Assembly (NCBI GenBank): GCA_030278955.1
Contig: JAOANR010000003.1
Location: 61,497,628 to 61,561,627, forward strand
DNA length: 64,000 nucleotides
From: Hygrophila difformis
Taxonomy: Eukaryota > Streptophyta > Magnoliopsida > Lamiales > Acanthaceae
Direction of reading: 5' to 3'
Shown here piece after piece: positions 10,696 through 52,210 of the stretch. Under the pieces are notes generated by a model. It did no database searches, was not told the DNA's origin, and saw nothing but the letters and a program-made list of their open reading frames with translations. Each line of letters starts with the position of its first letter. Positions within the stretch are counted from its first letter, which is position 1. Both the position numbers and the translations under genes were made by a program.

Positions 10696-10719
10696 TTGAA
10701 ACTCCTCTTATCTTTCAAC

Positions 10720-11660: not shown

Positions 11661-11679
11661 TACAGGCTCTGAAATTCCA

Positions 11680-16766: not shown

Positions 16767-16772
16767 GTTTAT
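16767..16772 (-). promoter_or_regulatory. TATA box of RLP2
   Basis: TATAAA on the minus strand, homologous in position to the RLP1 TATA box at 6917-6924. Confidence 0.45.
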
Positions 16773-17836: not shown

Positions 17837-18533
17837 TAGGGGTGATTAATGAGTATTGCTACTCGACTTGGAACTTGGCTCGAAAAAAATTCGACTCGTA
17901 CTCGATTATTATTACTCAACTCAAGCGAGCTTGAGCTCGTATCAAGTCAAGCTCTAGTATTTTAGTACTCGAGCATTTGAGCTCGACTCGACTCGATAAC
18001 ACTTGACACACATTTTAATTAATTTTCATTTCATACTTTTCCTCACACCCCCACTCTATATCACATTAGAAAATATGTCACTTATTTAAAATATCTAAAT
18101 GAGAAAAATAGTCACTCTTAAAAAATTAAAATATTCTCATTTTTAAAGAATTTTATTCTATCTTAATTGTACAATAACAAACACAATATTCAAATATCAA
18201 ATTGAATTGTGTCTTTTAGGCTATGGTTAAAAATTCAAAATCAAATGTTATAAGAAAAAAAATAAAATAAAATTCAAACTTAAGCTACAGACTTGAGCTC
18301 GAGCTCAGCAGAAAAATAAAAAAATAAAAAATAGAAAAAAAAAACTCGTGAGCTACTCGAACTCGATGATATCCGAGCTCGAACTCGAACTCACGATACT
18401 CGAACTCGATGATATCCGAGCTCGAACTCAAACTCACGATACTCGAACTCAAGCTCAAACTCGAATATATGCGGTCAAACTAAAACTCAAGTACCACAAT
18501 ACTCGAGCTCGACTCAACTTGATAACACCCCTA
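17837..18533. mobile_element. CTCGA-rich hAT MITE, 697 bp
   Basis: The termini are TAGGGGTGATTAATGAG on the left and ..TTGATAACACCCCTA on the right. The flanks are ATTATGAA (17829-17836) and ATTATAAA (18534-18541), a 7/8 match as expected for an 8-bp hAT target duplication with one mutation. The interior is packed with CTCGA, GAGCTCGA and ACTCGAACTCGATGATATCC units. No transposase is present. The element at 46848-47619 belongs to the same type. Confidence 0.75.
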
Positions 18534-18557
18534 ATTATAAATTGTTTTACTTGCAAG

Positions 18558-19752
18558 CAGTGGCGGAACTACTTCTTCGCCAAGGTGGTCATCTGACGCA
18601 CCTCAATTTTCAATTTTTTTTTTTTTTGTGTTGTGTGTGTGTGGATGGGCGGGCCACGTTCTGGAGCAGAAATGGAGGCGAAGGCAAGCCAGCGAGATGG
18701 AGAAGATGATAATGACAGGCGGCGGCTGGAGATGAGGATTCGCCGGCAAAGCAGCTGGCCGGATCTGGGAGATAGACAGCCGGAGTTGATAGTGGAGAAG
18801 GTGACCGGAGGATTGGAGTTGCTGGCCGCCGTCGTGAAGACTTGCCGGCGACGGAGATGGGCTTGCCGGAGATGATGGCTGGACATGGTGAAGATGGTGA
18901 TGCCGACAGGTTGCTGCTGTTGCCATTTCCAATTCTGAAATTAGAGATTTGCGGAGGAAGACACATATGAGTCCCACCTACAATCTAGTTATTTATTATT
19001 ATTTTTTTTTTATTTGGGGAGTTTATATGTACATACATAAATACTTATATTTTTATATTTCTTTTATTTTGCTTTTTCCAGCACAAATGTAATAAAATTA
19101 TAAAGTTGAAGTATTTTTAGTGGTATAGATTTTCAGTTGAGAGTTAAATGATATTTTGACAACACCAACATCGAGTTGCTTGGATTGATTGCTTGTTTTG
19201 ATCCAAGTAAATCATTTGCTGCATTTGATAAGAAGACTGTGATCAAGTTGGCTATAATTAATCCATATGAGTTTTCTGATGATGCACTAATGCTTGAAAA
19301 CCAATTTGAGAACTATATTAGGGATGGGAGAAATGATCCCGACTTCTCCGATTTGGTTATACTAGTGGATTTGCTAAGAAATTGGTTGAAAAGAACAAGG
19401 ACGAAACTTATCAATTAGTGTATTTGTTGATCAAATTATTCTTAATTTTTTCCGTGGCAACTGCGACAGTAGAAAGGGTATTTTCTGCAATGAAAATTGT
19501 CAAATCTGAGTTACGTAATCGGATGGGTGATGAAATATTGAATGGTTCTTTATTTTCTTTTGTTGTAAAAAGAATTATTCGATGAGGTAATTGTAGATGA
19601 AGTCATGAATTATTTTCAAGAAATATCGGTACGTCGAAGAGTATTTAATTATCATTTGAACGATAAAAAATATAGTTTGATTATTGTTGCGTAATATTTT
19701 AATTTTGCTTAAATTCCGACCACCCTGGACTGGAATCCTAGTTCCGTCACTG
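18558..19752 (+). mobile_element. hAT transposon, 1195 bp, with decayed transposase
   Basis: The termini are CAGTGGCGGAACTA and TAGTTCCGTCACTG. The flanks are perfect 8-bp duplications CTTGCAAG at 18550-18557 and 19753-19760. The interior holds a GC-rich island (about 18620-18960) and the C-terminal remnant of a hAT transposase (19176-19585). The element is internally deleted compared with autonomous hATs of about 3-4 kb. Confidence 0.9.
19176..19585 (+). pseudogene. hAT transposase C-terminal remnant (dimerisation region)
   Basis: Two overlapping plus-strand frames join by a frameshift near 19382-19418. The second reads LLIKLFLIFSVATATVERVFSAMKIVKSELRNRMG in order. The ATATVERVFSAMKIVK..LRNRMGD part is the hallmark of the hAT C-terminal dimerisation domain in plant transposases of the zinc-finger MYM-related group. 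The N-terminal zinc finger and catalytic core are missing, so it is not functional. Confidence 0.85.
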
Positions 19753-20002
19753 CTTGCAAGTGAAAAGTGGGCATGACTTAATGTGGAAAATGAAAAGGGT
19801 GGAGAAGCAACCCGATTGTTGCTCCATTGATTATGCAGAAGAAATATGAACACGTAATATTTAGTACTTCGCATGAATCGGACAAAGTTGTTGACTTTGA
19901 CATTAAAGTTGCTAGTCTTCGTTCCCCCAGTCGTGTCCCCAACAGAAAAAGCAAAAAACAAATCAATTCAAACAAGAGCTAAATTCTTATTACCAAAAAA
20001 AA

Positions 20003-20039
<37 letters not shown>

Positions 20040-20184
20040 GGAACATAATGCTTTCATCCAATCCTTCACAATATAAGAAGATGACACAACGCATCGAGGA
20101 TCGGATGTGATATGCAAGTCCTCTCGTTGACATATCCGATCCTACGTTTTCTGTAAACTTAGCATTCAACATACATACAACCAA
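19753..20184 (+). promoter_or_regulatory. RLP3 upstream region
   Basis: About 430 bp between the hAT element and the RLP3 start. It contains two adjacent W-box cores, TTGAC at 19891-19895 and 19897-19901, inside a block shared with other RLP upstream regions. An AAT microsatellite lies at about 20007-20038, and a TATAAG box at 20072-20077 is about 108 bp before the ATG. The hAT insertion lies about 430 bp upstream of the RLP3 ATG. Confidence 0.45.
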
Positions 20185-28139: not shown

Positions 28140-30240
28140 CCATACGCCGGACGCATCCGCCGCCATGTCCCTTAAAACGAAATTCGGAGGGAACGCCCAT
28201 GTAGTGAAAAAATCTTGAATAGACGATCCATGCTTGGCAAGACGATCATCCACCTTGTTCCCCTCCTTAGGACATGAAAAATGTGACACTCCACAAAGGA
28301 TGCCCTCAAGTCCTTCACCTGTCTTATCAAGGCCAACAAAGGATGGAAATCCTCCATAGAATCCAACAAGGTAATAGCTGTGGTGGAGTCAGAATATACA
28401 CAAAGCCTCTCCACGCCCAAGCTCTAGGCGAAGGAAAGGCCTGCCGAGTTGGTATTCTCACCTAGAAAACCACATCCGCCTCCTTTCCACTGACCCTCTT
28501 CACTCCGAACCACGAATCCAAAACACGCACGTCCCGGATTCCTCGCCGAGCTGCCATCTACATGAAGGATAGTATCATATCCTCTTTTCATATGCCAATT
28601 GACCAAACGTCCAGCAGGAAGACCAACCGAAAGCATAGCCTGGGATTTCACAACTTCAGATACCAGGAAATAGATATCCCTCTAAAGCCGCCACCTGGTT
28701 TTATAGACACCATGGAAAACTCGTGCATTCCTTTCCACCCACAGAGTCCAGAGGGTAGCCAGAAAGAGCATCCCATGGCATTTGTACAGCCCTTTCAAAA
28801 ATTCACAAATAAATTCCTTGGGGATGGAGTTGGCATCAGGGGGGGATATCTATCTGAAGCGAATGCCAAACAAAACTAGCCCAGGGGCAATAAAAGAAAC
28901 AGTGCGACCAAGTCTCTGCATCGCTCCCACATATTACACAAAGTGGAGAAGAGGCCAAACGCCGCTTGTACCTCAAGGAATTTACGGGCAGCGCATCATG
29001 GCTTACTAACCACACCAGGAACCACACCTTTTCGGGGACATCAACCTTCCATAGCCAACTCCAACCCGAGCCATGCAAAGTATCCAAAGAGATAAATTTA
29101 TAAGCTGATTTGACTGTGTACACGCCAGAGGAACTCCAATCCCAAACCCATAAGTCAGCCGCTGCATCATGTAATGGAGGAGGGGGAGCACTGTTGAGAT
29201 CGGCCATCAATTCAGGAAGAATAGGCGTGTAACGATTGGACCAATTCCACTGTCCTGACTTAATCACATTATTAACCTTGAGATCAAGATCCTGAGTGGC
29301 TACATAAGGAAGCTGTGGCCCGAGCATGCGCCCCTTCCACCATCTAGAAAACCAAAGTGAGACATCACCCTTCCCAAGTCTGAGTTTAAATCCAGCCTGA
29401 AGAAATGGTTGCACTTTAAACAACAGGCGGGAGACATAGGACCGAGTCCGGGGGGCTGTCAAAGGCAAGAAACCTGAAGGCTGCCCGGAGCCGACCACCA
29501 ACTGGACCCAAGTTTTATTCGGGCAGTGTAGGACACTCCATAACAGCTTTCCCAAAAGTGCGATATTCATAAGACGTGCACGTCAAAGACCTAAGCCCCC
29601 AGCAGCCCTTGGCCTGGAAACTGTATCCCAACTCACTAAATGTAAACCCTTACCACACCTATCCTTCCACAGAAAACGACTTATTCTTCGATCAATACCA
29701 TGGCACACCGACTCGGGGAGCCAATGGATCTGCATAAAATATGTGGGAATGGCCGCAAGGACCGATCGACAGAGGGTTAGACGTCCGGCCTTATTCAAAA
29801 GCTTAACGGCCCACCCCTCAAGACGAGCATCCATCTTCTCCAATAAAAAAGCGAAGTCACTGCAACGCCGCCGCCCTCGAAGCATGGGAAACCCCAAATA
29901 AGAGCCAAAATTATCAACTTCAGAAATGCCTAAGGTGGACACAACCCACTGTCTGTCCGCATCCGATACCGCCGGGGAAATGAGGAATGATGATTTCTGA
30001 ATATTAAGCACTAATCCCGACTCCTTGGCAAATCTCTTCAATGTGTGGGAAATAGTCTGAATACTTTCTGTGTTCATCAAGGAGCACAAAATGAGATCGT
30101 CTGCAAAGCACAGATGAGATAGTCCGATGCTTGATCCCGGGAGCCTAATGGCTTTCCAACGGCCATCACTAACCAGAGAGTTAATGAGTACAGACAACTT
30201 CTCCATCACCAACAAAAACAAATATGGCGACATGGGGTCA
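28140..30240 (-). mobile_element. 5'-truncated LINE retrotransposon (RT end, zf-RVT, RNase H)
   Basis: The minus strand first reads the second half of a non-LTR reverse transcriptase (30233-29583). It includes the catalytic CFADDLILC and the SYLGFPMLRGRRR and WLPESV..RRISRFLWKD blocks. The plant LINE zf-RVT region (29570-28836, CVICGSDAETWSHCFFYCPW) follows, and then an RNase H domain (28651-28172) with HVDGSSARNPG and SDSTTA. The first two parts share one frame, broken only by a TGA at 29583-29585 where an Arg (CGA) is expected. The RNase H is frameshifted near 28420. The endonuclease, ORF1 and first half of the RT are missing, since homology begins at GDPMSPYLF by 30233. This is typical 5' truncation on insertion. 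Not functional. Confidence 0.9.
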
Positions 30241-34065: not shown

Positions 34066-34434
34066 AAAAAAATATCCATCAACAAGAAAAAAAATTAAAC
34101 TAATAAGTTAGAGTAAAACATGACCTATACATGTAGGAGTACAATACAAGTGTGTATATGCATACTATACGTACACATTCTTCATAAATAGTAATTGAAA
34201 ATAGGGAAAATTCGAAATAAATACCTCCCTTCTCATCCTTATTACCTCTTCAGTACCCATAGGGGTTTTTTATCCCTTTTCAGTACCCAACACTTTTTTC
34301 GTAGGAGAGAGATTAATATTTTGACAGTTTTGCCCTTACTTAAGTCTAGTACGTTTTCCTTATCAGTTTTGTACATTTTGCATATAATTTCAGTACTTTT
34401 TATATTGGGTTTCAATACTTTTTCTGGATATTTG

Positions 34435-34439
<5 letters not shown>

Positions 34440-34478
<39 letters not shown>

Positions 34479-34499
34479 GTTTAAAAAAAAATTTTTATT
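34440..34499 (-). terminator. Poly(A) signal followed by an A-tract, end of the extra-ORF cluster
   Basis: On the minus strand, AATAAAAATTT (about 34491-34500) lies just after the last small ORF and is followed within about 20 nt by about 35 consecutive A. This looks like the 3' end of a polyadenylated transcript copied into DNA. It lies inside the left end of the element. Confidence 0.5.
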
Positions 34500-34516
34500 A
34501 GGGATTTTAATTGTGA

Positions 34517-34771
34517 TTAACCGGTATAATTAACCTGCCACTGTTTTCTTTCCCGATCTAATCCCTTTTCATATGCCTGTAGGTTGTTGATTTCATCATT
34601 TATCCAAAAACTTAAATCTAATTCTTCCATTATGAGATTTTTTCTGTTTAAGATCTGCAAGCATTTTATTTTTGCTTCGATTTGGATTTTTACAATTTCT
34701 TTTTTAATGCGATATCTTTCAATCGCAGTTTTCTCCCATTTACTGTAGTCTCTTATTGTTTTATAAGTCAT
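34517..34771 (-). CDS. Small ORF C of the caulimovirid unit, unknown
   Basis: 84 residues, charged and mostly predicted helical (many K, E and I), with one Cys. I recognise no family. The ATG overlaps the upstream stop region: ORF B ends in TAA two bases before it, a spacing typical of compact viral genomes. It is the last gene before the poly(A)-like end. It is called real because of that spacing and because three consecutive intact frames are unlikely by chance in AT-rich DNA. Confidence 0.5.
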   Translation of the reverse strand: MTYKTIRDYSKWEKTAIERYRIKKEIVKIQIEAKIKCLQILNRKNLIMEELDLSFWINDEINNLQAYEKGLDRERKQWQVNYTG

Positions 34772-34773
34772 CT

Positions 34774-35157
34774 TTAATGTTGATTTCTGATATGATTAAT
34801 GAATTCTGTTTTAGAAGTGTTCAACTCTTCTATTTTTGTTTTGAGGTCTGTTGATTGGTAACTTATAACTTCTTCATATATATGAACTGAATTTAGAATA
34901 GTTTTTATTTCTTCATCACGGTTTAACACATATATGAGTTCATGTGCTTCTTCTTCTTCGTCTTCTTTAGATTCTGTTAACCTTATAATTGTTTCTTTAA
35001 GGTCTTTTATTTCTTTTTCTATTTTCCACATGATTTCTCCAAGTTTTCCACATTCAGGACAAATATCAAAAGGTATTTGTACTTCCATTTTTAAATCAGT
35101 TATTTCTTGCAAAACGTTCTTCTTGTAATTTTTTCCACATTTTTTCTTCATATTCAC
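34774..35157 (-). CDS. Small ORF B of the caulimovirid unit: CxxC plus coiled coil, unknown
   Basis: 127 residues. A CPEC pair (about residues 33-36) precedes a long helical, acidic segment (IEKEIKDLKETIIRL, then a run of E). Its start overlaps the end of ORF A by about 60 nt in another frame, and its stop abuts the ORF C start. No known family is recognised. The CxxC-then-coiled-coil layout resembles the N-terminal parts of the polyprotein and of ORF A. Confidence 0.5.
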   Translation of the reverse strand: MNMKKKCGKNYKKNVLQEITDLKMEVQIPFDICPECGKLGEIMWKIEKEIKDLKETIIRLTESKEDEEEEAHELIYVLNRDEEIKTILNSVHIYEEVISYQSTDLKTKIEELNTSKTEFINHIRNQH

Positions 35158-35518
35158 ATGCTATAAAATAGTTTTCACATCTTTTTATATGGTTATCCTG
35201 TAATTTTTCAAAAACATTATAGATTTTAGTATGCTTTTGATAACTGTTTTCTAGAATTTCTATTTCATTTTTTAGAAATTCAGTCTCCTTAGTCACTTTC
35301 CATTTTATAATATTTTCAAACAATCTTTGTTTTCTGCAAATCATGTCTATTTGATTTCGCTTATTCATCAGTCTAATAAGCCAAATTTCACATTCTTGGC
35401 ATAGAAAGTGTGTTTTCGGGTAAGGTACAATAACAAACCTTGTTTCTGTGTTTTCAGAAGTTTCTACTTTAAACAAATCTGTTTTAGAGTTTTCAGCAGT
35501 TTTAGTCATATTCTCCAT
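35096..35518 (-). CDS. Small ORF A of the caulimovirid unit: CxxC plus coiled coil, unknown
   Basis: 140 residues with a CQEC pair (about 40-43) followed by a helical, charged region rich in K and E. No known family is recognised. It lies about 800 nt downstream of the viral-type TATA box and poly(A) module at 36.2-36.35 kb. On a circular genome it would therefore fall within the pregenomic leader region, ahead of the primer site. A T/A homopolymer of about 40 bp sits just upstream (35548-35586). Confidence 0.5.
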   Translation of the reverse strand: MENMTKTAENSKTDLFKVETSENTETRFVIVPYPKTHFLCQECEIWLIRLMNKRNQIDMICRKQRLFENIIKWKVTKETEFLKNEIEILENSYQKHTKIYNVFEKLQDNHIKRCENYFIACEYEEKMWKKLQEERFARNN

Positions 35519-35547
35519 TTGTTTTGATAAAAGATATTAGTTATTTC

Positions 35548-35586
35548 AGATAAAAGTTTTTTTTTTTTTTTTTTTTAAAAAAAAAA
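35548..35586. repeat. T-run/A-run homopolymer
   Basis: About 22 T are followed by 10 A on the plus strand, forming a near-perfect A/T palindrome upstream of ORF A. Confidence 0.8.
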
Positions 35587-36203
35587 CACTGGTTTTTATG
35601 CGCGAAAAACTTATATGTCGTGATGTCTTACTAGGTACTTGCCATCTCCTATTGTTCTCTTGGTCGTGTTAAATTTCTGATTATGTGTTATGGGTCCGAT
35701 TGTCCTTTGTTATGGAAATATTATTATAAACATTAAGTCCGCAATCCTTTTATTACTGTCACTGATGAGATATTTTTCTGGGCCTGTTTCGGGTTTCAAA
35801 TTCAAATTAGCATTATCCAGACCTAGATCTGAAATGTAAGCAGGGGGTCTAAGGGGCAAATCAAAAGGGACAACAGTAACAAGACACCATTATGTTTAAC
35901 AAACATCCCTGAATTGTGGTTCCCCTAACGAGTCTTTCTTACAGCTTTTTATGGCATAAAGCCTTTTAAATTTTTATCTTACTTCCCTAATGGCATATCT
36001 CATCAATTAAGTTTTAAAAGGTCACATATTTATGTTTATAACATTATCGTCCATACATAGAACAATCATACCACAACATAAATCATAAACTAACCCATAC
36101 CTTGAGAGAGGAGAGGCTTTCCCGTTCAGACGGGCCCCTGTATTTCAGAAAGTAAAGAAAAGAGGAAGCAATCCACACCGGGTCTTTCTTTACAAACTGA
36201 AAT
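35587..36203 (-). other. Leader-like non-coding region of the caulimovirid unit
   Basis: This lies between the poly(A) signal and ORF A. No long ORF. On a circular viral genome this would be part of the pregenomic RNA leader. Confidence 0.4.
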
Positions 36204-36209
36204 TTTATT
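36204..36209 (-). terminator. Viral-type poly(A) signal (AATAAA)
   Basis: AATAAA on the minus strand lies about 135 nt downstream of the TATA box. Caulimovirids place promoter and poly(A) signal this close together, so that the pregenomic RNA is terminally redundant and the signal is skipped on the first pass. Confidence 0.65.
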
Positions 36210-36343
36210 ACTGAAAGGGTTGGGAATACAAGAGAATTAGAGAGAGAAAGAGCTTTCGAGAGTAGCAAGAATGCAGTCTCAAAAACCTTAGAGAGCTAAA
36301 GAGCTAAGAAGTGGGTGTGTGTTACAAGTGAAGACCATCCCTC

Positions 36344-36351
36344 TATTTATA
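36344..36351 (-). promoter_or_regulatory. Pregenomic RNA-type promoter, TATA box
   Basis: TATAAATA on the minus strand (context CATCTATAAATAGAGGG) lies between the viroplasmin-like ORF and the poly(A) signal. This is the same order as the 35S promoter module in caulimoviruses. The predicted start would be near 36315. Confidence 0.65.
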
Positions 36352-36685
36352 GATGGGAATGTCATCTAAGTAATCCACAACAACCAATAAAAACGTGCCA
36401 AGTGGCAAAGCTATCCGATAAGGTTCGGATGAAAAATCAAACAACTAATAATGCAACAATATAATAATGAGGGGCCTAGTGCCCATTAACGTGGTTTTCC
36501 AAGAGTCACATGGCTCTTGTCTGCCTTTTGGTTTTATCCGCCTCGGATTCCTTCTTTCACATGGTTAGTGGTGCTTTTTGGCTCCACTGGCATTTTGTTT
36601 TCTTCTTGACTTTTTTCTTTTCAGGATTCCTTCCTTCACATGCTGGTATTTATTGTGAATTCCAGCTCATTTCTGCGTGGCTCCC

Positions 36686-38152
36686 TTAGTACTCTTCATC
36701 ATTGTGGGGTCCGCCACTTTCTTTTTTCTGGTTTTTTATGATTTTATTGGCCTGGAATTTTGCTTCATTTTTCTTTAGTGCTACCAGTGCACTAAACCTT
36801 CCATTTTTTCTGGTTGCCATTGCTTCAGCAAAAGTAGGCTTTAATTCAATTTCAAGCTTATGAAGAATTTCTTCTTCACTGAGGTTCTCAAATTTTCCAG
36901 TCTGTACTGGACTCATAGTTTTTGGCAAACTACCAGCCATAACCGGAATTGATGTGCTTTTACCATCTACCGGACTAGATGGGTTTAGTTCAACATTTTG
37001 GTCCTCAAAGACCTCAGGGTTAGAACTTCCCTGGTTTGGTTCAAAATTATCTGAACTTATGCTTTTTAGCAAAGCATCAGCTATCAACGGACTTGATTCG
37101 TCTTTACCGTCTGCCGTTTGAGACGGACTAGATTCAAACTTTTGATCCTTAAAGATCTCAGGAGTTGAATTTTCCTGGTTTTGCTGCATCCAGGCTTTTG
37201 CCAATTCTACTGCAGTCATAGAACTGGTGGGTTTGGGTTCTGGACCATAGACTGGTTTTTCTTCTGGCTTTGGTGTTTTTAGTGTGAGGGACACAATTTT
37301 TGAGGTCAATTTCTCATTTTGGTTTTGAAGGATTTCAAGTTTCTTGGTGAGGGTTTCAATCTGGGCCTCTGCTTCAAGGGTTTTCATTTTTTGGTTTTCA
37401 AAATTCTGTAACCATTCGGCCTTTTGGGCTTCATATTTACAGACTTCCTTGGCCATTTTTTCACAATGGTCACAAAACACAATGTGGGTTTTAGAAGAAT
37501 GTCCAATTGAATATTGGACTGGGCCTGTAGGATTTTGGGTTTTTGGCCTCAAACCATCAACAATGTTTTTCAAACTTGGGCTTACAAAGAAATCTGGGCC
37601 CATTGTGGTTTTTGCAAATTGAATTGCAGACATTATGTCATAAAATCCTTTATGAAGAGGTTTTTCATTATCTTCATTAAGAGGTAAAATATCATTTTTA
37701 TCATAAATTCCTTTTTTATAACCTTCATAGATTACATAATATAAAAATGGTTTTATGTTATTGAATTTCTGGAAATACATGCTTAAAGCAGAGAGACAAG
37801 TAACAATATACCTGCTGTTGTTTTTGTCAAATGATGCTCTCCAGATGTTATCACAAAGGCAGATCTGTTCCTCTGTGTAGTTCAACCCTGTGATAGGCCT
37901 GTACTTCATGTTATCAAATAAGATTAATTCTACATTATTGCCTGTTTCTGCTCTTTTGCCAAAGCAGATTTTCACTCCTTTTTCTGGGAGTTTATCTTTT
38001 TTCTTCCCTTCTGGGATGCTGGTTTTAGAAGGGATTGTGTAATATCCCTCTGGGGTTTTCACCATCCCTGTGGTTTTTACTCCATTTTCATTGCTGATTT
38101 TCAAAGAGTTTTTCTGGGAGTTTTCTGCCATTCCTGTAACAATATTATTCAA
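36686..38152 (-). CDS. Viroplasmin/translational transactivator-like protein of an endogenous caulimovirid
   Basis: 488 residues. The segment around 136-180 (YYVIYEGYKKGIY ... KGFYDIMSAIQFA) has the pattern of the viroplasmin RNase-H-like fold found in caulimovirus inclusion-body proteins, which let ribosomes reinitiate on polycistronic RNA and form virus factories. A CDHC pair (about 227-230) and a coiled coil (about 240-292) follow. Near the C-terminus there are two imperfect copies of a unit of about 50 residues (PEIFKDQKFE.. / PEVFEDQNVE..). The ATG overlaps the polyprotein stop by 4 nt, the promoter module follows, and the frame is intact. The family assignment rests on the short viroplasmin pattern, the position and the need for such a protein in a polycistronic virus. 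A structure-based search would settle it. Confidence 0.6.
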   Translation of the reverse strand: MNNIVTGMAENSQKNSLKISNENGVKTTGMVKTPEGYYTIPSKTSIPEGKKKDKLPEKGVKICFGKRAETGNNVELILFDNMKYRPITGLNYTEEQICLCDNIWRASFDKNNSRYIVTCLSALSMYFQKFNNIKPFLYYVIYEGYKKGIYDKNDILPLNEDNEKPLHKGFYDIMSAIQFAKTTMGPDFFVSPSLKNIVDGLRPKTQNPTGPVQYSIGHSSKTHIVFCDHCEKMAKEVCKYEAQKAEWLQNFENQKMKTLEAEAQIETLTKKLEILQNQNEKLTSKIVSLTLKTPKPEEKPVYGPEPKPTSSMTAVELAKAWMQQNQENSTPEIFKDQKFESSPSQTADGKDESSPLIADALLKSISSDNFEPNQGSSNPEVFEDQNVELNPSSPVDGKSTSIPVMAGSLPKTMSPVQTGKFENLSEEEILHKLEIELKPTFAEAMATRKNGRFSALVALKKNEAKFQANKIIKNQKKESGGPHNDEEY

Positions 38153-41100
38153 TTCTCAATATTCCAGTCCTCCCTGTAAAATTGATCCCATTTTAATTTA
38201 TATTTTTCCTCATCATTTTCATCATAATTATTAATTGATTCATTTTTAAATTCAGTGTCATATAATGGTTTTTCCCTTTCTTTAATCAGAATTCTAGATA
38301 GTATATCAGCAATTTTGTTATCTTCTCCTTTAATATGTTCGAATTTTATTTTGTAGCCTTTCTGACTAATAACATCTGTAAAATTCAACCACCTTCTCCT
38401 AGACATTGATCTTTTTTCTTGGAGTTGGCTATGAAATTTTACTATGGCTTCACAATCAGTTCTTACTGTAAATCCTGGTTTTCCTGTTAGAAACAGTTCA
38501 AATTTATCAAGTGCATATTTTATTGCCAACAGTTCTGCATCAATTGAGGAAAGGTTACCCTTTTCTCTATATTTTCCTGATGCATACTGGCAAATTTCTT
38601 CCTTACTTTTAGGTGAGTAGACATCCTTTTTTCGCAAAAGGATAGCTCCCCATCCTTCATGTGATCCGTCAGTTTGCACAATAAGATAATCATTATCTTC
38701 TGGCAAAACCAATTCTGGAAGTGTTTTTAATGCTTCTTTAATTTTTTGTACATTTTTTATATCTTCTTGGTTAAAATATCTTTGACCGTTTTTTCCCAGT
38801 TTATTATATAATGATCCTGTTAATGAGGATAAGTTTTTAATGTATGGTCTAGCATAATTAACCAATCCTAAAAATTGTTGTAATAGTTTTGTATCTTCCA
38901 TTTTATCAGGAAATTCTATAGCCTTTTTAGCAATATGATCTTGGAGTTTTATTTTTCCTTTTCCAATTTCTGCTCCAAGGAATGCTATTTTAGTTTTATT
39001 GATTTCCATCTTTTTCTTTGAGATGATTATTCCATGTTTTTCGAATAGCCTAAACACTGTGTCGAGGTGACTCATATGTTCAGTACTATTTTTTGAAAAT
39101 ACTAGAATATCATCAATGTATACCAAAACAAATTTTTGGTATGGTTTAAAAATTTTATCCATTTTTTGTTGAAATATAGCTGGTGCATTTTTTAGTCCGA
39201 ATGGCATTACTAGCCATTCAAATAAACCTTCTGGACATGTGAATGCAGTCCATTCGACTGACTCAGGATGCATTTTTACCTGCCAAAATCCTGACTTACA
39301 GTCAAATTTGCTATACACTTTTGAGTCTTGAATTCTATTTATTAAGACTGTTTTATCTGGTATATTGTAAGCAAAATCCTTTGTATTATCATTAAGTCTT
39401 TTATAATTAATGACCATTCTTGATTTTCCTCTTACAATTTCAGAATGTTTTCTTACAATAAAAGCTGCAGACCTATGTCTGGAGTTTGATTCTCTAATTA
39501 CTTTTAAAGCTTTTAATTCATCAATATGCATTTTGAAATCTGCTATATCCAGATTTGTAGGATTTATTTCTGCAGTTGAGATTCTCAATTCTGGATTTAT
39601 TATTTCAAGCTTACATATTGTTCCATCTTTTTCCCAATATTTCTGGATGTTATCTCCAATAATTTGGGATTTTTCTAACCTCTCAATCCATTTTGTTATG
39701 GTTTCTTCAGGCTTAAACCTAGTTATACTTATTAATTCTTTCAGCTTTGGGGTTTCAGGAATGTATTCTTCTTCAAACTCCGTAATCTCTATGTTTTCTT
39801 TACAAGTTTGTTTACATGCTCCTTTTATTTTGCATTTACAGTTTTCAATATCTTTATTTTTTAAAAGTTTTTTATTTTTTGTTTTTGTATTATTAGGGGT
39901 TCCACCACGCTTCTCTCGCAACTCTGATGTTGTTAAGAGCTTGGTTCCCGCATTACTAATACTAGGTGCAAACATTGCCAAAGTTGCTTTTTCAACAATT
40001 TGGATATAATCTTTTGTAATAAATAATCCTCCATTATTTTGTAAGAAGAATTGTAATCCTAAGATTACATCTGCATTTATTACTAAGTCTTTTATATATG
40101 AATTATCAGGAACTCCATAGGGTTCTGATATTCCACAATTGGTTTCAAAGAATATTTGTCCACCTGAAATAGGTTGTTTTGTTGTATATGATATTCTTCC
40201 ATCCATTAATTCTGATTTAATGGGTTTTGCTAAGTTTTTCTGTAGATGTTCTGGGATAAGTTTCTCATTTATTATTATTCTTGTACATCCTGTATCGATT
40301 ATTGCATTAGTACGGAATACCAATTCCCTTAATTTAAAGATTATTGGTACCCTTAGTGTAGTTAATGATGAAGGATCGTGGCACACAGGTATGTACTCAG
40401 GGTTTTGTGCTAACATGTACTCCGTACTAGGATTTTGTTTATCATTAGATTCTTCTTCAGGAACTTCTTTTCCTTTATTTTCCGTATTTTTAGGACTTAA
40501 CATATTATAATCTTCTAAGATTTCTTCTATGTTTTCAATTCTGGTTTTTAATTCCTTAGGATTCATTATATCTTGTAAATCAAAAAGTTTTCTTTCTATT
40601 ATATCTATTCTTTTTGTGATGAATGTATAATTATCATCAATTTTTGTTATTGGCATTTCTTCGGGGAATTTAATTTTATAATATTTTAACAAGCATATTT
40701 GGCATATTTCCACATGACATATTGTACATTTAGCTCTAAGTTTTCTTGATGGGTAATAAGAGCATTTTATACAAGGTGTAGAATCAGTGCCTACCCTGAA
40801 AAGCCAATTATGGTTTTCGCATTCATTAATTTCTCTCATCATATACTCAGTTTCATATGGCATCATATACTCTTTATATGTGATACCATTATATGAGTTT
40901 TCATTTGCAAGCATATTAATCAATTCATAGGGATCATCATCCCCTTGTTCTTCTATAACATTTTCTTCCACTGTTACTATGCTATATATTGTTTCAGTCT
41001 CAGAAACATCTGAGTCTACATCCAATATATCTTGTTGTATACATTCTGTAAGAATTGCTTCTCTTGAATGTTGGTTTTTTCTTTTAGGACATGCTGTTGC

Positions 41101-42876
41101 CAAATGGCTTTCATCACCACATGTGAAACAAGCAAGTTTCTTTGTATAATTTCTACTAGGATTATATTTTCTGACGTGATGTTTTTGTTTCAAGAAAGGT
41201 TTTCTGCTATTTGATTGTTTTATAAAATACTTCTTTCTTGTTATGAATTTGGGTTTTTTCCTTAATGGTTCCGGCCTACCATATCGTTGAGGAGTATATA
41301 TCCTTTTACAGAATGAATAATCAGTTTTCTTAAGTTGTTTTTGTGCAATTATATTTGTACACTTATCTTTTAATATTTTTACCACATGAACAGCCCTCAT
41401 ACTAATAGTGTATTGTTGGGGATTCTTTTCAACCATTTTATTCCATGTATCCTGAATTTCTTGACCAATTGGTCTTGGTATTTTCATAAATAATTTTTCA
41501 CCTAACTCTTGGTTAAAAGCACCTCCTGCTAGGCCTGTATAGTAGACATATTCATTTAAGAAGTCTACTGTTCCATATAAGTCATCTAGATGCATTTGGT
41601 CTAGATGGATTAAGGCATCCATTTGTGTTGTTATATGTCCTGAATTACCATCTTCACCCGTTATTAGACTTGATATTTTATTTACAAAGTTATAAGGATT
41701 TGGTCCTCTTTCTATTAAGTCTTGATAATCCATTGGATAGTCTCTTTTAAATACTTCCCACATTGACTGTGCGAATTCTCCTAAATAGGTTTCAAGATAT
41801 CCATACATTGATTCAGCTGTATCATTATAATCATTTTTGTTTTTGATGTAATCAGCCACAACTATGTTTTTCCATTTTGCAATTACTGAGCCCCATTCTT
41901 GAGGGCTCACATTTGTTACTTCTAATATTGCTGGGTTATGATAATATCCTCTTTCTAAAGGTTGCCTAATTCCTCTAGGTTTTGTTATCATCCCAGGTTG
42001 TATTTTTCCATAAGGATATTCTGGATGAACATGTGTGATTGAGTGTCTAGAATTGTTTCCAGTATAATTAGTTCCAGGTCTCCACTCAGTACCTCTTTGG
42101 TATGGGGCAAAGGGAGTTCCAGGGACTCTTGTTATACTGTCTCCTGTATTTTTCATGACAACATCTTTGTTCATGAATTCCTTAGCTGTTTTATTTGTTT
42201 TCTCAGAATGTAAGGAGATATGGTCTCCCATATATTGTTCCATTAATATATTATCAGAACTTTGTCCTACTTCTGGTGAGTTTTCCTTTAAGAACAAATG
42301 AGCTTCTATATCTGCTTGTTGTTCTTCTTTTATTTGTATTTTTTGTAACCTTTTCTGTACTTCTTTCTCAATAATATCTTCTAAATTATTCTTCCATTCT
42401 TTATTTTTTCTTTTCATTTTATCCTTTAATTCTTGTTTTTGTTCATTTAGTTTTGATATTTCTCTTATCATTTCTTCATAATTTTCTATCCAATTCTCAA
42501 AATATCCACTATGTTTTGGACATTCTACTAAGTGGATCATATGTTTTAACTTATCAGAATATCTTCTATCAAGATCAATTTTACAATCTTGACAATTGTG
42601 AGGTAATATTCCTTTGTTTTTGAATTTTTTAGTCAAGGCAGAATGCACATGTTGTGAGAAAACTCTTTCATACCTGTCATGATACTCTCTTTTATTTAGA
42701 ATTTTTCCTTTCTTAAAGTTTTCAAATTTTCTTGTTTTTAAACAAATATGTTGAATGTCTTTAGCAATTCTTTCCACTTCATCTTCACTAGGGTGGAATA
42801 TTTGTTTTCCTTCATATTTTACATAGTTATCCGTTACTGGTTTTTCTACAATAAATCTTTTCATTTGTCTATTCAT
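38149..42876 (-). CDS. Caulimovirid polyprotein: coat protein, protease, reverse transcriptase, RNase H
   Basis: 1575 residues with no internal stop. Order: a charged N-terminus with coiled coil (about 130-195) and the coat protein region (about 300-600). The coat ends in a zinc knuckle CX2CX4HX4C (583, 586, 591, 596). A second cluster CX2CX11CX2CX4CX2C (702-728) follows; this spacing is described for badnaviruses. Then come an aspartic protease (DTG at 861-863), a reverse transcriptase with YIDD (1253-1256), and RNase H with all four acidic residues (D1403, E1448, D1474, D1524). There is no integrase, which separates it from LTR retrotransposons. The ORF starts 8 nt inside the end of the movement protein gene and overlaps the next gene by 4 nt, so translation is probably coupled. 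All catalytic motifs are present. This is an old or recent nuclear copy of a plant pararetrovirus, described here only as found. Confidence 0.93.
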   Translation of the reverse strand: MNRQMKRFIVEKPVTDNYVKYEGKQIFHPSEDEVERIAKDIQHICLKTRKFENFKKGKILNKREYHDRYERVFSQHVHSALTKKFKNKGILPHNCQDCKIDLDRRYSDKLKHMIHLVECPKHSGYFENWIENYEEMIREISKLNEQKQELKDKMKRKNKEWKNNLEDIIEKEVQKRLQKIQIKEEQQADIEAHLFLKENSPEVGQSSDNILMEQYMGDHISLHSEKTNKTAKEFMNKDVVMKNTGDSITRVPGTPFAPYQRGTEWRPGTNYTGNNSRHSITHVHPEYPYGKIQPGMITKPRGIRQPLERGYYHNPAILEVTNVSPQEWGSVIAKWKNIVVADYIKNKNDYNDTAESMYGYLETYLGEFAQSMWEVFKRDYPMDYQDLIERGPNPYNFVNKISSLITGEDGNSGHITTQMDALIHLDQMHLDDLYGTVDFLNEYVYYTGLAGGAFNQELGEKLFMKIPRPIGQEIQDTWNKMVEKNPQQYTISMRAVHVVKILKDKCTNIIAQKQLKKTDYSFCKRIYTPQRYGRPEPLRKKPKFITRKKYFIKQSNSRKPFLKQKHHVRKYNPSRNYTKKLACFTCGDESHLATACPKRKNQHSREAILTECIQQDILDVDSDVSETETIYSIVTVEENVIEEQGDDDPYELINMLANENSYNGITYKEYMMPYETEYMMREINECENHNWLFRVGTDSTPCIKCSYYPSRKLRAKCTICHVEICQICLLKYYKIKFPEEMPITKIDDNYTFITKRIDIIERKLFDLQDIMNPKELKTRIENIEEILEDYNMLSPKNTENKGKEVPEEESNDKQNPSTEYMLAQNPEYIPVCHDPSSLTTLRVPIIFKLRELVFRTNAIIDTGCTRIIINEKLIPEHLQKNLAKPIKSELMDGRISYTTKQPISGGQIFFETNCGISEPYGVPDNSYIKDLVINADVILGLQFFLQNNGGLFITKDYIQIVEKATLAMFAPSISNAGTKLLTTSELREKRGGTPNNTKTKNKKLLKNKDIENCKCKIKGACKQTCKENIEITEFEEEYIPETPKLKELISITRFKPEETITKWIERLEKSQIIGDNIQKYWEKDGTICKLEIINPELRISTAEINPTNLDIADFKMHIDELKALKVIRESNSRHRSAAFIVRKHSEIVRGKSRMVINYKRLNDNTKDFAYNIPDKTVLINRIQDSKVYSKFDCKSGFWQVKMHPESVEWTAFTCPEGLFEWLVMPFGLKNAPAIFQQKMDKIFKPYQKFVLVYIDDILVFSKNSTEHMSHLDTVFRLFEKHGIIISKKKMEINKTKIAFLGAEIGKGKIKLQDHIAKKAIEFPDKMEDTKLLQQFLGLVNYARPYIKNLSSLTGSLYNKLGKNGQRYFNQEDIKNVQKIKEALKTLPELVLPEDNDYLIVQTDGSHEGWGAILLRKKDVYSPKSKEEICQYASGKYREKGNLSSIDAELLAIKYALDKFELFLTGKPGFTVRTDCEAIVKFHSQLQEKRSMSRRRWLNFTDVISQKGYKIKFEHIKGEDNKIADILSRILIKEREKPLYDTEFKNESINNYDENDEEKYKLKWDQFYREDWNIEN

Positions 42877-43834
42877 CTTCCTGACCTTCTTCTTCTGTAA
42901 AATCTATTGGTCGTTTTGCAGTTTCATAATCATTAAATCTTACTGACGTTTCTCCTCTGGAGTTAATGAAGTAATTTACATTTTTTGGAGTTAAATTTTT
43001 AACATTTGGTTTTTCAAAGAATTTTGATAGATCCCAATTTTTCCCAGCATTTTCTTCCGATGATATTTCAGTTGGTCCTATCATTTTTACTCCTTCACTT
43101 CCTATGATACTTACCACAGTTTCAATTTTTGTTTTATGCCTGGTTTGGCCATTGTTTGTGATTCTTCCTAAGAAGCCTACACACACCATTAGGTTGTGAC
43201 CAGTTTCCATTTCTTCATATCCTACAGTTTGAATTCCTATTTGGATATGCTTCATAAAATCTGTTATTTGTATCATATAATCTGGTGCCAAATAACATAC
43301 TCCCACATTAGGGTTCATATCAATTTCCATTAATCCTATGATAGCTTGGGTTGGATTAGTCCACCTTGTATCTAGAACAGTCATTAGGACTTTAGTTCCT
43401 AAGTTTTTTCTAGTTAAACCTTTTACTCCTATGGAGATTAATCCCATATGCATGTATTTTTGTCCTTGTCTTTGAAGCCTAATTGCTTCATTATTGCTTA
43501 TTAATTTTATTAATTTTTTGTCATCTTTTAGACAGCTTATTGGTTCCGTATAATGATATTTGTAATATCCTGTGTTCCAATTAAGGAATCTTTGGTCATA
43601 CAATAATCTTGGTTCCAATTGGATTAATGTTCTTTTCTTGAAGTTTTCAAATTCAATATCAGGGTCAATTATTTCCTCAATTATTGTTGGCCCTTCTTCA
43701 AGTTTGGTTTTTTCTCTGAACATTCTATCTATTAAGGTTTTTTCAAAGTTTGAGCTTTCAATCCTTTGAGAATTACTTCTTTCTACTAGACTGTTTTTGG
43801 ATTCATTAGTAAGAGAAAACGATCTTCTGCTCAT
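42869..43834 (-). CDS. Caulimovirid movement protein (30K-like)
   Basis: 321 residues in its own ORF. The central part (about 120-235, including GLMEIDMNPNVGVCYLAPDY) matches the pattern of caulimovirid movement proteins of the 30K superfamily, which enlarge plasmodesmata for cell-to-cell spread. In badnaviruses and tungroviruses this domain is fused to the coat protein; here it is separate, as in caulimoviruses. The ATG overlaps the stop of the preceding ORF by 4 nt. Intact frame. The call rests on motif and position. Confidence 0.75.
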   Translation of the reverse strand: MSRRSFSLTNESKNSLVERSNSQRIESSNFEKTLIDRMFREKTKLEEGPTIIEEIIDPDIEFENFKKRTLIQLEPRLLYDQRFLNWNTGYYKYHYTEPISCLKDDKKLIKLISNNEAIRLQRQGQKYMHMGLISIGVKGLTRKNLGTKVLMTVLDTRWTNPTQAIIGLMEIDMNPNVGVCYLAPDYMIQITDFMKHIQIGIQTVGYEEMETGHNLMVCVGFLGRITNNGQTRHKTKIETVVSIIGSEGVKMIGPTEISSEENAGKNWDLSKFFEKPNVKNLTPKNVNYFINSRGETSVRFNDYETAKRPIDFTEEEGQEDE

Positions 43835-44310
43835 TTTTGTAAATATTTTTCGTCTGGTTTTACAACCCAGAAGTTTAGTTTTTCTTGTGGTTTAGTTTTC
43901 CTTCTAGCTTCTGCAGGTAACTTTGCAATTTGTTCAGCTAGTTGTTTTATTGTATTATCTTCAGGTATTCTAACAGCTTGTATTCTTTCAAGTTTTTCAT
44001 CTATGCTTTCAATGGCTATTCTTAATGCAGGGTCTTGATATTTTTTCATGTTTTCCATTTGAACATGTACATCATCAATTTTTTTCTTTAGTATTTCAGT
44101 TGTTACAAGCTCTTTTATTTTCTTGTCAATTAGACTAATATTTGTATTATTTGTTTTATTATGGTCTGTCATTTCGCCAATCTTCTTATGAAGATTATTA
44201 ACATTTAGCTTTATTTCTACTAATTCTTTGTTTAATTCTTTGAATTTATTATTAATTTCTTGTTTAAAGTTTTCTATTGTTTCTTTAACCTCTTTTAAAG
44301 CTGTTTCCAT
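43831..44310 (-). CDS. Virion-associated-protein-like coiled coil of a caulimovirid
   Basis: 159 residues. The N-terminal two thirds is a coiled coil with regular I/L/V spacing (FKELNKELVEIKLNVNNLHKKI). The C-terminus is basic and proline-containing (EARRKTKPQEKLNFW). Caulimovirus VAP and badnavirus ORF2 proteins share this plan: a coiled-coil multimerisation part and a basic nucleic-acid- or capsid-binding tail. It lies directly before the movement protein (4-nt overlap), and its ATG overlaps the previous stop by one base (TAATG). The assignment is by architecture, not sequence identity. Confidence 0.55.
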   Translation of the reverse strand: METALKEVKETIENFKQEINNKFKELNKELVEIKLNVNNLHKKIGEMTDHNKTNNTNISLIDKKIKELVTTEILKKKIDDVHVQMENMKKYQDPALRIAIESIDEKLERIQAVRIPEDNTIKQLAEQIAKLPAEARRKTKPQEKLNFWVVKPDEKYLQK

Positions 44311-44711
44311 TATCCTTTAATGATTTTTATAATTTTGTTACACATTTCATTTACATTTTCAATATTGTTTTCAACAATATTTTTAATTTCCTTTATCTCT
44401 TTATCAAGTTTTTCAACCTTATCTTGTAGTTGTTTTAATTCCTCACTATGGTTAATGATTTTTCTCGGATTTGGGATATCATTAACTAGTTTAGAATTTT
44501 CATATTGAAGTGTTGTTATGGTTTTAGATAAGTTTTTCATTCCACTGGATGATTTATCATACTGGGTTGATAAGTATGTTTGGTTTTCTAATATTACTTT
44601 AAGATTTGTATTATTTTGTTTTCCTAATAATTCTAACTTATCTAGTTTTGCTTCAATTGATTGAAGACTTCTTTGTATATCCATGTTTTTATTTGTTAAC
44701 ATTTTATTCAT
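44310..44711 (-). CDS. Coiled-coil protein of the caulimovirid unit, unknown
   Basis: 133 residues, nearly all coiled coil (IEAKLDKLELLGKQ, then LQDKVEKLDKEIKEIKNIV). It overlaps ORF 44704-44958 by 8 nt and the next ORF by 1 nt. It may correspond to a badnavirus ORF1/ORF2-type or an aphid-factor-like protein, but I see no decisive motif. Confidence 0.5.
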   Translation of the reverse strand: MNKMLTNKNMDIQRSLQSIEAKLDKLELLGKQNNTNLKVILENQTYLSTQYDKSSSGMKNLSKTITTLQYENSKLVNDIPNPRKIINHSEELKQLQDKVEKLDKEIKEIKNIVENNIENVNEMCNKIIKIIKG

Positions 44712-44958
44712 GAGTTTTTAAGTGTTGTCTTAAAGCTTCTAATCTTACGATTAGTTTGCAATAATTTTTAAAAGTTCTATTTTTCTTGAGTTTTATTCTT
44801 TTGATTTTTATTTTATTTTGTTTACAGATCTTACAATCTTTAGTTTGGTTTTTGAATAGCCTTTTCTTTTCAATATCAATTATTAAAAATTTTTCGTAAT
44901 TAATATTGTCATTTAATTTAATTGTGTTTTGATTATCTTTTAATCCGTCATTAGCCAT
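44704..44958 (-). CDS. First small ORF of the caulimovirid unit, basic, unknown
   Basis: 84 residues with a very basic centre (CKICKQNKIKIKRIKLKKNR) containing a CxxC pair. Its ATG lies 23 nt after the tRNA primer site, the position held by the first small ORF in caulimoviruses. Function unknown. Confidence 0.5.
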   Translation of the reverse strand: MANDGLKDNQNTIKLNDNINYEKFLIIDIEKKRLFKNQTKDCKICKQNKIKIKRIKLKKNRTFKNYCKLIVRLEALRQHLKTHE

Positions 44959-44980
44959 AAGCCCTAAAATCGCAACTTAT

Positions 44981-44992
44981 GCTCTGATACCA
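44981..44992 (-). promoter_or_regulatory. Primer binding site for initiator Met-tRNA
   Basis: The minus strand reads TGGTATCAGAGC, which pairs with the 3' end of plant initiator Met-tRNA and primes minus-strand DNA synthesis in caulimovirids. It lies just upstream of the first ORF. No LTR end (..CA) precedes it, so this is not an LTR retrotransposon. Confidence 0.85.
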
Positions 44993-45250
44993 ATTTTTTA
45001 GAGGGGGTGTGTTTTTTGGGCACTTTTTAGAGAAGTGTTAAACTCTTTTAGGTAATTTTTAGATATTATTTCTTTGATTTTATGTTTTAAGGGTAAAATG
45101 GTCTTTATTTTAAAATTTTATCTCTCCATGTACCTTATATGAATTTTTGTTTTTGGTTGGGGGGTTTAGAGGAAGAAAAATTGTTTGGGGTATTAAAGTG
45201 GTAAGTTCTTTTGGAATTAGGTATTTTTTAGGTATTTTCCCTTGAAAATA

Positions 45251-51099: not shown

Positions 51100-52210
51100 T
51101 GATTTGGACATCACTTTATATCTCGAATCGGCCGCATTCCAATTTTCTTCACAAGCTTCTCGAATGTCGCAGTCGGCAATGCCTTTGTCAACAGATCCGC
51201 TAGATTTTCTTCTGATCGAATTTATTGTACATCAATTTCATCATTCTTTTGAAGATCATGGGTATAGAAATTTTTTGGTGAAATGTGTTTAGTCCTATCT
51301 CCTTTAATATAACCCCCTTTCAATTGGGCTATACAAGCCGAATTATCTTTAAATTAATTGTTGGGGGCATTTTTTGGTTTAGTGACCAAACCACAATTTT
51401 TCAATATATGATTTGTCATTGTCCTCAACCAAATACATTCTCGACTAGTCTCATGGATTACTAATATTTCGGCATGATTTGATGAAGTAGCTGTTAATGT
51501 TTGTTTCATAGATCTCCATGAGATAGCTATTCCACCACACACAAAGATATAGCCTATTTGAGATTTGGCTTTGTGTGGGTCTGATAAATATCCTGCATCG
51601 GCATATCCGATCAACTCATATCGAGAATTCTTTGGATAAAATAATCCGAGGTCAACTGTTCCCTGGAGATAGCGAAATATGTGCTTTATCCCTTTCCAAT
51701 GTCGTTGAGTAGGGCAAGAGCTAAATCTTGCAAGTAAATTAACAGCAAACGCGATATCCGGTCGCATGCTATTTGCAAGATACATTAATGCGCCAATTGC
51801 GCTTAAATATGGCACTTCTGGGCCAAGTTCTTCATTATCTTCTTTTGGCCTAAATGGATCCTTTACAGGATCAAGTGCCCGAACGACCATTGGATTACTT
51901 AATGGATGAGAATAATCCATTCTAAATTGCTTGAATACCTTTTGGGTATAAGTTGATTGATGAACTAATATGCCCTTATCCAAATGCTCAATTTGCAGGC
52001 CAAGGCAAAATTTCATTTTTTCGAAACCTTTGATTTTGAACTCCATTTTAAGATATTCAACTGCCTTTTTCAACTCTTCAGGAGTTCCAGTTAAATTTAA
52101 TCGTCAACATAGACTGCAACAATTACAAATTCCGACCCATTTTTCTTTATAAAAACACAAGGGCATATAGAGTCATTTATATAACTTTCATTTATTAAAC
52201 TTTCGCTGAG
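51100..52210 (-). pseudogene. Copia reverse transcriptase/RNase H, broken
   Basis: The minus strand reads RT sequence up to the catalytic YVDD (about 52110). A small deletion makes a stop right after YVDD. A long frame (52073-51354) then carries KFCLGLQIEHL, YLSAIGALMYLANSMRPDIAFAVNLLARF and the RNase H region with YADAGYLSDPHKAKSQIGYIF. After another frame change it continues to NLADLLTKALP..FEKLVKKIGM near 51100-51200. At least two frameshifts, so it is inactive. Confidence 0.88.

What the first reader, a model, noticed from the sequence alone, without database searches (positions are those of the whole stretch)
34195..45250. A complete caulimovirid gene set bounded by Mutator-like inverted ends and a perfect 9-bp target duplication
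Caulimovirids have no integrase, and their genomic copies are usually scrambled, partial and without target duplications. Here an 11,038-bp unit starts GGGAAAAT and ends ATTTTCCC, with an inverted AAATACCT about 15 bp in from each end. Weaker inverted similarity extends about 150 bp, and TTGAAAATA flanks both sides exactly. That is how Mutator-superfamily elements insert. No transposase is inside; the cargo is an entire pararetrovirus. This suggests a virus moved by, or permanently packaged in, a DNA transposon, a combination I do not know from described elements. Seen: termini, duplication, gene content. Inferred: the mechanism.
Basis: partly seen in the sequence, partly recalled or inferred. 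Interest (0 to 1): 0.95.

Follow-up and report, generated by a model that had tools for sequence, protein, structure and literature searches.

The report
Plant pararetrovirus with transposon ends
In a plant genome, a complete gene set of a virus family with no known way of inserting itself sits between transposon-like ends and occurs in dozens of copies, nearly all of those checked flanked by the 9-base duplication that a jumping gene leaves, which points to a defined insertion route for such viruses.

Summary
The unit 34204-45241 is one of at least 45 copies with both ends in the same 915-Mb genome (host probably Lamiales). Of 37 other copies whose flanks could be compared, 33 carry an exact 9-bp target duplication, 3 have one mismatch, 1 has three; mismatched pairings agree in 6 of 1406. 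Ends GGGAAAAT...ATTTTCCC, ~150 bp of weak inverted similarity and 9-bp duplications are Mutator-like. No transposase was recognised in the seven ORFs tested. The cargo is a caulimovirid gene set and does not look like a dead passenger: an RT fragment from 20 other copies has no stop, and pN/pS among copies is ~0.065. Ends and virus body are reassorted, with a breakpoint zone around the tRNA primer site; one of six variable left-end sites is strongly linked to the far right end. I favour a caulimovirid that replicates as a circle by reverse transcription and is inserted by a host MULE transposase in trans; circle and helper are inferred. Against: 22 of the 40 best RT copies lack a recognisable left end, no joined-end junction is in the assembly, and no helper with matching ends was identified.

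The parts
34195..34203 (.). left copy of the 9-bp target site duplication TTGAAAATA
   Evidence: read; 33 of 37 assessable other copies have an exact 9-bp duplication
34204..34436 (.). left end of the unit (Mutator-like, GGGAAAAT...), 3' side of the virus genes
   Evidence: boundary read in 40 copies; 71 sites genome-wide with up to 3 mismatches, reversed control 0
34399..34404 (-). TATAAA box candidate on the coding strand in the left end
   Evidence: motif match only
34437..34474 (.). T38 run (A38 on the coding strand); 6-50 long in 19 other copies
34774..35157 (-). ORF of 127 aa, no Pfam family; intact in 11 of the 18 copies in which it was found
35096..35518 (-). ORF of 140 aa, no Pfam family; intact in 14 of the 18 copies in which it was found
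36686..38152 (-). ORF of 488 aa; remote match to the C-terminal part of caulimovirid polyprotein P0008, so perhaps TAV-like; coiled coil
   Evidence: 25% over 134 aa, E 7e-7 for the single comparison; P0008 bears PF01693, position not shown; Pfam gave no family
38149..42876 (-). polyprotein of 1575 aa: coat domain, aspartic protease, reverse transcriptase, RNase H
   Evidence: PF22909, PF21024, PF00078, PF17917/PF17919
42869..43834 (-). movement protein, 321 aa
   Evidence: PF01107, E 7.8e-10
43831..44310 (-). ORF of 159 aa; part compared, pN/pS 0.108 over all pairs, 0.081 for diverged pairs
44310..44711 (-). ORF of 133 aa, intact in 35 of the 36 copies in which it was found
44981..44992 (-). 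primer binding site TGGTATCAGAGC (complement of initiator tRNA-Met; motif recalled)
45025..45241 (.). right end of the unit (Mutator-like, ...ATTTTCCC); two haplotypes among copies, about 18 bases apart
45104..45109 (-). AATAAA candidate polyadenylation signal in the right end
   Evidence: motif match only
45242..45250 (.). right copy of the 9-bp target site duplication TTGAAAATA
   Evidence: read

Best explanation
A caulimovirid lineage has acquired Mutator-type ends, and these ends are part of the genome that the virus propagates. Shown by comparison of copies: the unit inserts end to end with 9-bp target duplications at many sites; RT and two leader-proximal ORFs carry the mark of purifying selection among unit-bounded copies; ends and body are reassorted. 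Inferred: the virus replicates as a circle in which the two ends lie side by side within the leader or promoter region; a MULE transposase supplied by the host recognises the ends, opens the circle there and inserts it; an integrated copy can return to the circle by excision or copy-out. The linear copy shows no terminal redundancy in the repeats listed, so a terminally redundant pregenomic RNA would need the circle.
For: Same ends, mostly ~11 kb, and exact 9-bp duplications in 33 of 37 assessable copies, plus 6 further end pairs by coordinates. RT fragment: 0 stops in 20 of 20 other copies; pooled pN/pS 0.065; shared changes 12 N: 54 S against ~1195 N: 302 S sites. ORF133 intact in 35 of 36. 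Right-end haplotypes A and B each occur with more than one adjacent leader type; breakpoint zone 44926-45050 holds the primer site. Left-end site 34352 has r2 0.90 with right-end sites 11 kb away and 0.04-0.10 with the sampled neighbouring leader sites. No direct repeat joins the two end regions in the 20 of 42 families shown (minimum 20 bp). PF10551 MULE transposases are abundant, many with identical scores. IS256-type transposases, similar to MULE ones, insert circles with joined ends (passages of PMC7780238).
Against: No end-to-end junction with 0-25 bp between the ends in the assembly (exact pattern only; episomes need not be assembled). 22 of the 40 best RT copies have no recognisable left end, so RT selection may have acted partly in relatives without ends, followed by recombination. 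The linkage argument uses the best of six left-end sites; block means are 0.30 for left end-right end, 0.25 for RT-right end, 0.14 for left end-RT and 0.05 for left end-leader, so it is suggestive only, and lineages are few. RT and right-end haplotype are also associated (3 changes on the tree against 6.1 in shuffles). No helper with matching ends was found, though only 150 of 2395 MULE candidates were scored. By its title (reference list seen) a study of MULE transposition finds it like hAT and V(D)J recombination, not copy-out.
Confidence: 0.5

Rival explanations
1. Pack-MULE-like passenger: a virus copy became trapped in a non-autonomous MULE, and the unit has since spread only as DNA by host transposase. 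The selection signal dates from free viruses whose genes entered units through several captures or recombination.
For: Unit structure, 9-bp duplications, no recognised transposase in the ORFs tested; RT copies without recognisable left ends exist; changes private to one copy are less constrained than shared ones (23 N: 26 S against 26 N: 82 S, Fisher p 0.005).
Against: The 21 RT sequences compared all lie inside units and the most diverged pairs have dS ~0.15 with dN/dS ~0.04-0.06; this needs several separate entries into the same ends at the same junction. Ends and body are reassorted, which DNA copying alone does not predict.
Confidence: 0.36
2. A caulimovirid with its own integrase-like function encoded in one of the unassigned ORFs.
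For: Five ORFs have no Pfam family; the AlphaFold model of the 488-aa protein was poor (mean pLDDT 43.5), so its fold is open. A 92-aa stop-to-stop frame (34517-34795) and the non-ORF stretches were not scanned.
Against: The 488-aa ORF resembles the tail of polyprotein P0008; the other four ORFs are 127-159 aa, short for a DDE transposase; no integrase or transposase family among the rows shown at E up to 10 (for two ORFs 25 of 36 and 25 of 79 rows were shown).
Confidence: 0.08
3. Ordinary scrambled endogenous caulimovirid; ends and duplications are chance or unrelated flanking repeats.
For: Endogenous caulimovirids are usually fragmented and rearranged (PMC4241990 passage).
Against: 33 of 37 exact 9-bp duplications with a 6 of 1406 control; one left boundary in 40 copies.
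Confidence: 0.01

Closest known systems
Teratorn (herpesvirus fused with a piggyBac transposon, medaka)
   Same: a virus genome between DNA-transposon ends with target duplications (passages of PMC10175614); several copies per genome is recalled
   Different: Teratorn carries its own transposase and is a 180-kb herpesvirus; here an 11-kb reverse-transcribing plant virus without a recognised transposase, Mutator-like ends, 9-bp duplications
Endogenous caulimovirids (florendovirus, eBSV, ePVCV and others)
   Same: caulimovirid gene content; RT 64-68% identical to several mostly unnamed relatives, 56% to Dioscorea nummularia-associated virus, about 45-53% to badna- and tungroviruses (120 of 849 listed)
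   Different: described copies are nearly all fragmented and rearranged and the integration mechanism is called speculative (PMC10377300 and PMC4241990 passages); the unit of 11.0 kb exceeds the 7.1-9.8 kb stated for the family (passages)
Mutator-like elements and Pack-MULEs
   Same: 9-bp target duplications and inverted ends (Mu: start of the PMC2774946 abstract in the listing; Pack-MULE recalled)
   Different: cargo is a whole pararetrovirus gene set with signs of purifying selection; the two ends match each other only weakly
IS256-type copy-out/paste-in elements
   Same: proposed circle with joined ends; transposases similar to MULE ones (PMC7780238 passages)
   Different: bacterial, encode the transposase, 8-bp duplications in the example ISCth4; a circle is only inferred here

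Membership tests
Caulimoviridae | movement protein, coat, protease, RT and RNase H domains in one genome | tested here: met
Caulimoviridae | tRNA-Met primer binding site in the leader | tested here: met
   TGGTATCAGAGC minus strand from 44992 (motif recalled)
Caulimoviridae | genome of 7.1-9.8 kb (range of described members) | tested here: inconclusive
   unit is 11,038 bp with its ends; length of any episome unknown; range from passages of PMC13308828 and PMC10741241
Caulimoviridae | circular DNA replicating by reverse transcription | not testable with these tools
   only indirect: selection on RT, linkage of the ends
Mutator-like elements (MULE) | target duplication of about 9 bp (8-11 recalled) | tested here: met
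   33 of 37 exact 9 bp
Mutator-like elements (MULE) | terminal inverted repeats | tested here: met
   8 terminal bases perfect, weak similarity over ~150 bp
Mutator-like elements (MULE) | MULE transposase in the element or an identified helper with matching ends | tested here: inconclusive
   none recognised in the ORFs tested; many MULE domains in the genome, not linked to matching ends
Teratorn-type virus-transposon fusion | virus genome mobilised as a unit by DNA-transposon ends | tested here: met
   by comparison of copies; no mobilisation assay
Teratorn-type virus-transposon fusion | own transposase gene | tested here: not met
   (seven ORFs; other frames not scanned)

The most novel reading that the evidence does not exclude
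A reverse-transcribing plant virus has made DNA-transposon ends part of its own genome and uses them as its attachment site: it multiplies as a circle by reverse transcription and enters the host chromosome precisely through the host's MULE transposase.
Probability: 0.42. Interest if true: 0.95.

Novelty: new variant of a known kind. Interest (0 to 1): 0.86.

Why it matters
How caulimovirids enter plant genomes is described as speculative (PMC10377300 passages), and the mechanism of their integration and propagation as unknown (PMC10175614 passage). This element gives one concrete, repeated and testable route, and joins a reverse-transcribing virus to a DNA transposon. If the circle model holds, it would be a hybrid life cycle with RNA-based replication and transposase-based integration.

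Tried and rejected
Chance or artefact: rejected by the copies. Transposase in the 488-aa ORF: Pfam at E up to 10 listed none, the PDB sequence search gave only E 0.64 and 0.83, the AlphaFold model was poor; the P0008 match points to a TAV-like protein. Joined-end junction in the assembly: 0 matches. The inverted end pair at C5:8231100/8243953 looked like an autonomous MULE, but both ends are the virus left-end type, 186 of 186 identical to each other, without a target duplication: probably a rearranged palindrome. Other-end sites (15 of 98 with GGGAAAATTATAGATAAATACCT) are a possible helper family; reading coordinates by eye, none of the 150 scored MULE hits lies near them, but 2395 were candidates. 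Viral contig scan with the RT: 5 pattern matches, none a relative. Literature; in the titles and abstract beginnings listed (not all matching papers are listed: 20 of 166, 20 of 49, 6 of 18, 8 of 16) none describes caulimovirids with Mutator ends. Papers were seen only as passages, one reference-list part and listings; preprints and most subscription papers are not held.

Limits: letters fetched cover ends and one RT fragment. Copies are not independent. MP, coat, protease and the 488-aa ORF were not compared among copies. First-look counts of 113, 260 and 674 are loose; only 40 of each were scored.
Full report
WHAT IS THERE. The window lies at G000:C9:61497628-61561627 in a 915-Mb assembly. 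The unit 34204-45241 begins GGGAAAAT, ends ATTTTCCC and is flanked by TTGAAAATA on both sides. The two ends align over about 150 bp with score 27.5; 500 mononucleotide shuffles reached at most 19.5. On the minus strand lie ORFs of 133, 159 and 321 aa (movement protein), 1575 aa (coat, protease, RT, RNase H), 488, 140 and 127 aa. A primer site complementary to initiator tRNA-Met starts at 44992 (motif recalled).

IT IS A MOBILE UNIT. A search with 226 bp around the left end scored 40 of 113 candidates; all 40 are 96-100% identical and their alignments start at query position 1-10. The boundary was read in all 40, the window copy included. For the 39 other copies I fetched the stretch where the right end should lie and the missing left flanks. 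In 37 of 39 the right end is there, at 9.9-11.1 kb; in one more it lies 18.9 kb away, which suggests an insertion inside; in one (L074) it was not found. One right flank reads N. Of the 37 others, 33 have an exact 9-bp duplication, three have one mismatch and one has three; among the 33, the match goes on beyond 9 bases only at two TTA-repeat sites. Left 9-mers against right 9-mers of other copies agree in 6 of 1406 comparisons. Six more end pairs 10.9-11.2 kb apart were found by coordinates only. With the window copy this makes at least 45 units with both ends. A 29-base left-end pattern with up to 3 mismatches has 71 sites, its reversed control none.

THE VIRUS GENES DO NOT LOOK LIKE A DEAD LOAD. 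ORF133 is intact in 35 of the 36 copies in which it was found, ORF140 in 14 of 18, ORF127 in 11 of 18. A 499-codon RT fragment fetched from 20 of the 39 other copies has no stop in 20 of 20; 4 of 20 have deletions (6, 1, 6 and 2 bases), and one match stops short. Pooled pN/pS over distinct haplotypes is 0.065 for RT, 0.108 for the part of ORF159 held, 0.154 for ORF133, 0.286 for ORF127 and 0.562 for ORF140. In RT, changes shared by two or more copies are 12 nonsynonymous to 54 synonymous, although nonsynonymous sites are about four times as many (1195 to 302); private changes are 12 to 14. Pooled over RT, ORF133 and ORF159, shared changes are 26 to 82 and private ones 23 to 26 (Fisher p 0.005). 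For close pairs the ratio is higher (RT 0.18, ORF133 1.2, ORF140 1.7, ORF159 5.3); choosing pairs by low silent divergence biases it upwards, and ORF159 rows are partial. All 21 RT sequences lie in units with these ends, so the plain reading is that RT was needed while the units diversified.

RECOMBINATION AND THE ENDS. The right end exists as two haplotypes that differ by about 18 bases between 45050 and 45219. Haplotype A occurs with several adjacent leader/ORF133 types, including the diverged one in L009; haplotype B (16 of 38 rows) occurs with a type close to the common one and with the diverged type (L019, L065, L075). The breakpoint zone, 44926-45050, holds the primer site 44981-44992, where a template switch of reverse transcription would be expected (recalled); ordinary DNA recombination can also do it. 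Left-end site 34352 is linked to the right-end haplotype with r2 0.90 over 11 kb, with one exception (L077), while sampled neighbouring leader sites give 0.04-0.10. This would fit a circular map. It is suggestive only: 34352 is the strongest of six left-end sites (the other five give about 0.05, 0.33, 0.33, 0.12 and 0.45), mean r2 is 0.30 for left end-right end, 0.25 for RT-right end and 0.14 for left end-RT; the RT tree is poorly resolved, with 8 of 15 inner branches open, and by my reading shows only about five or six lineages.

WHICH MOBILITY SYSTEM. 9-bp duplications, GGG...CCC termini and long imperfect inverted ends point to Mutator. The genome has many MULE transposase domains; 150 of 2395 candidates were scored, and dozens have the same score, which suggests a recent burst. 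Fifteen of 98 sites of a relaxed end pattern carry a related but different end, GGGAAAATTATAGATAAATACCT. The helper is not identified.

RESULTS AGAINST. (1) A search with 401 bp of RT gave 674 loose candidates and 40 scored, 97-100% identical. 17 of 40 have a left end in the right orientation within 14 kb; the 3-mismatch list adds one, at C4:21799386 (read by eye), so 22 of 40 have none, and by eye none of the 40 scored right ends lies beside them. They may be truncated or rearranged, hold larger insertions, or be virus copies integrated in another way; I could not read them. This weakens 'permanently packaged' and leaves room for selection acting in relatives without ends. (2) No joined-end junction is in the assembly (exact pattern). 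(3) A study of MULE transposition is titled as resembling hAT, Transib and V(D)J recombination (reference list of PMC7780238), so the copy-out circle is an analogy with IS256.

MECHANISM PROPOSED. Shown by comparison: precise end-to-end insertion with 9-bp duplications; constrained RT; reassortment of ends and body. Inferred: circle, split leader or promoter (a TATA candidate at 34404 and AATAAA at 34499 lie on the left side, the primer site and another AATAAA at 45109 on the right, motif matches only), and insertion by a host MULE transposase. The linear copy has no direct repeat of its two end regions among the families listed (20 of 42 shown), so a terminally redundant pregenomic RNA would have to come from a circle.

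RELATION TO KNOWN THINGS. The RT is 64-68% identical to several database proteins (mostly unnamed, on contigs of 3-10 kb; also Lolium and Cornus), 56% to Dioscorea nummularia-associated virus and about 45-53% to badna- and tungroviruses (120 of 849 listed). The 488-aa ORF has two database relatives and matches the tail of caulimovirid polyprotein P0008. Teratorn is the nearest concept (passages of PMC10175614). Reviews call caulimovirid integration speculative (PMC10377300 passages) or unknown (PMC10175614 passage).

VERDICT. Observation confirmed and strengthened. It is a virus-transposon fusion of a combination that I did not find in print within the searches named in Tried and rejected. The mobile unit itself is close to certain; that reverse transcription is part of its propagation is more likely than not but unproven; the host MULE helper is inferred.

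Noticed in passing
G000:C5:8231100-8243975 (L130, L131): Two left-type ends facing each other 12.9 kb apart, 186 of 186 identical, no target duplication: probably a palindromic rearrangement of the unit.
   Followed up: partly
G000:C9:1912532 and 1913369: Two left ends back to back only 837 bp apart: two insertions close together or a rearrangement.
   Followed up: no
genome-wide, e.g. G000:C8:54463780, C1:63056281: Fifteen sites with the end GGGAAAATTATAGATAAATACCT: a second family with the same terminal design, possible helper or MITE.
   Followed up: no
genome-wide PF10551 hits: Dozens of MULE transposase exons with identical score and mostly a 353-aa open frame: a recently amplified MULE family; one (C13:12434442) lies about 11 kb from unit copy L009.
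   Followed up: partly
34437-34474 and L002-L020: T run (A run on the coding strand) of 6-50 bases with varying borders next to the left end, in the window 19 bases after an AATAAA on the coding strand; could be a trace of a poly(A) tail or slippage.
   Followed up: partly
L011 / L030: Copy of 9.9 kb that lacks about 1.1 kb next to the left end.
   Followed up: no
L013, L016, L020: Copies with a left body segment only ~89% identical to the window but RT and right end ~99% identical: mosaics.
   Followed up: partly
L128, L129: Two right ends share the same outer flank with TTTAGGG: duplicated locus, perhaps near telomere-like repeat.
   Followed up: no
window 3416-22941: Three large LRR ORFs with N-terminal LRR caps, receptor-like.
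   Followed up: no
window 28836-30233 and 51354-52073: Reverse transcriptase remnants: RVT_1 with zf-RVT (non-LTR-like), and a weak RVT_2 match below its cut-off (copia-like).
   Followed up: no
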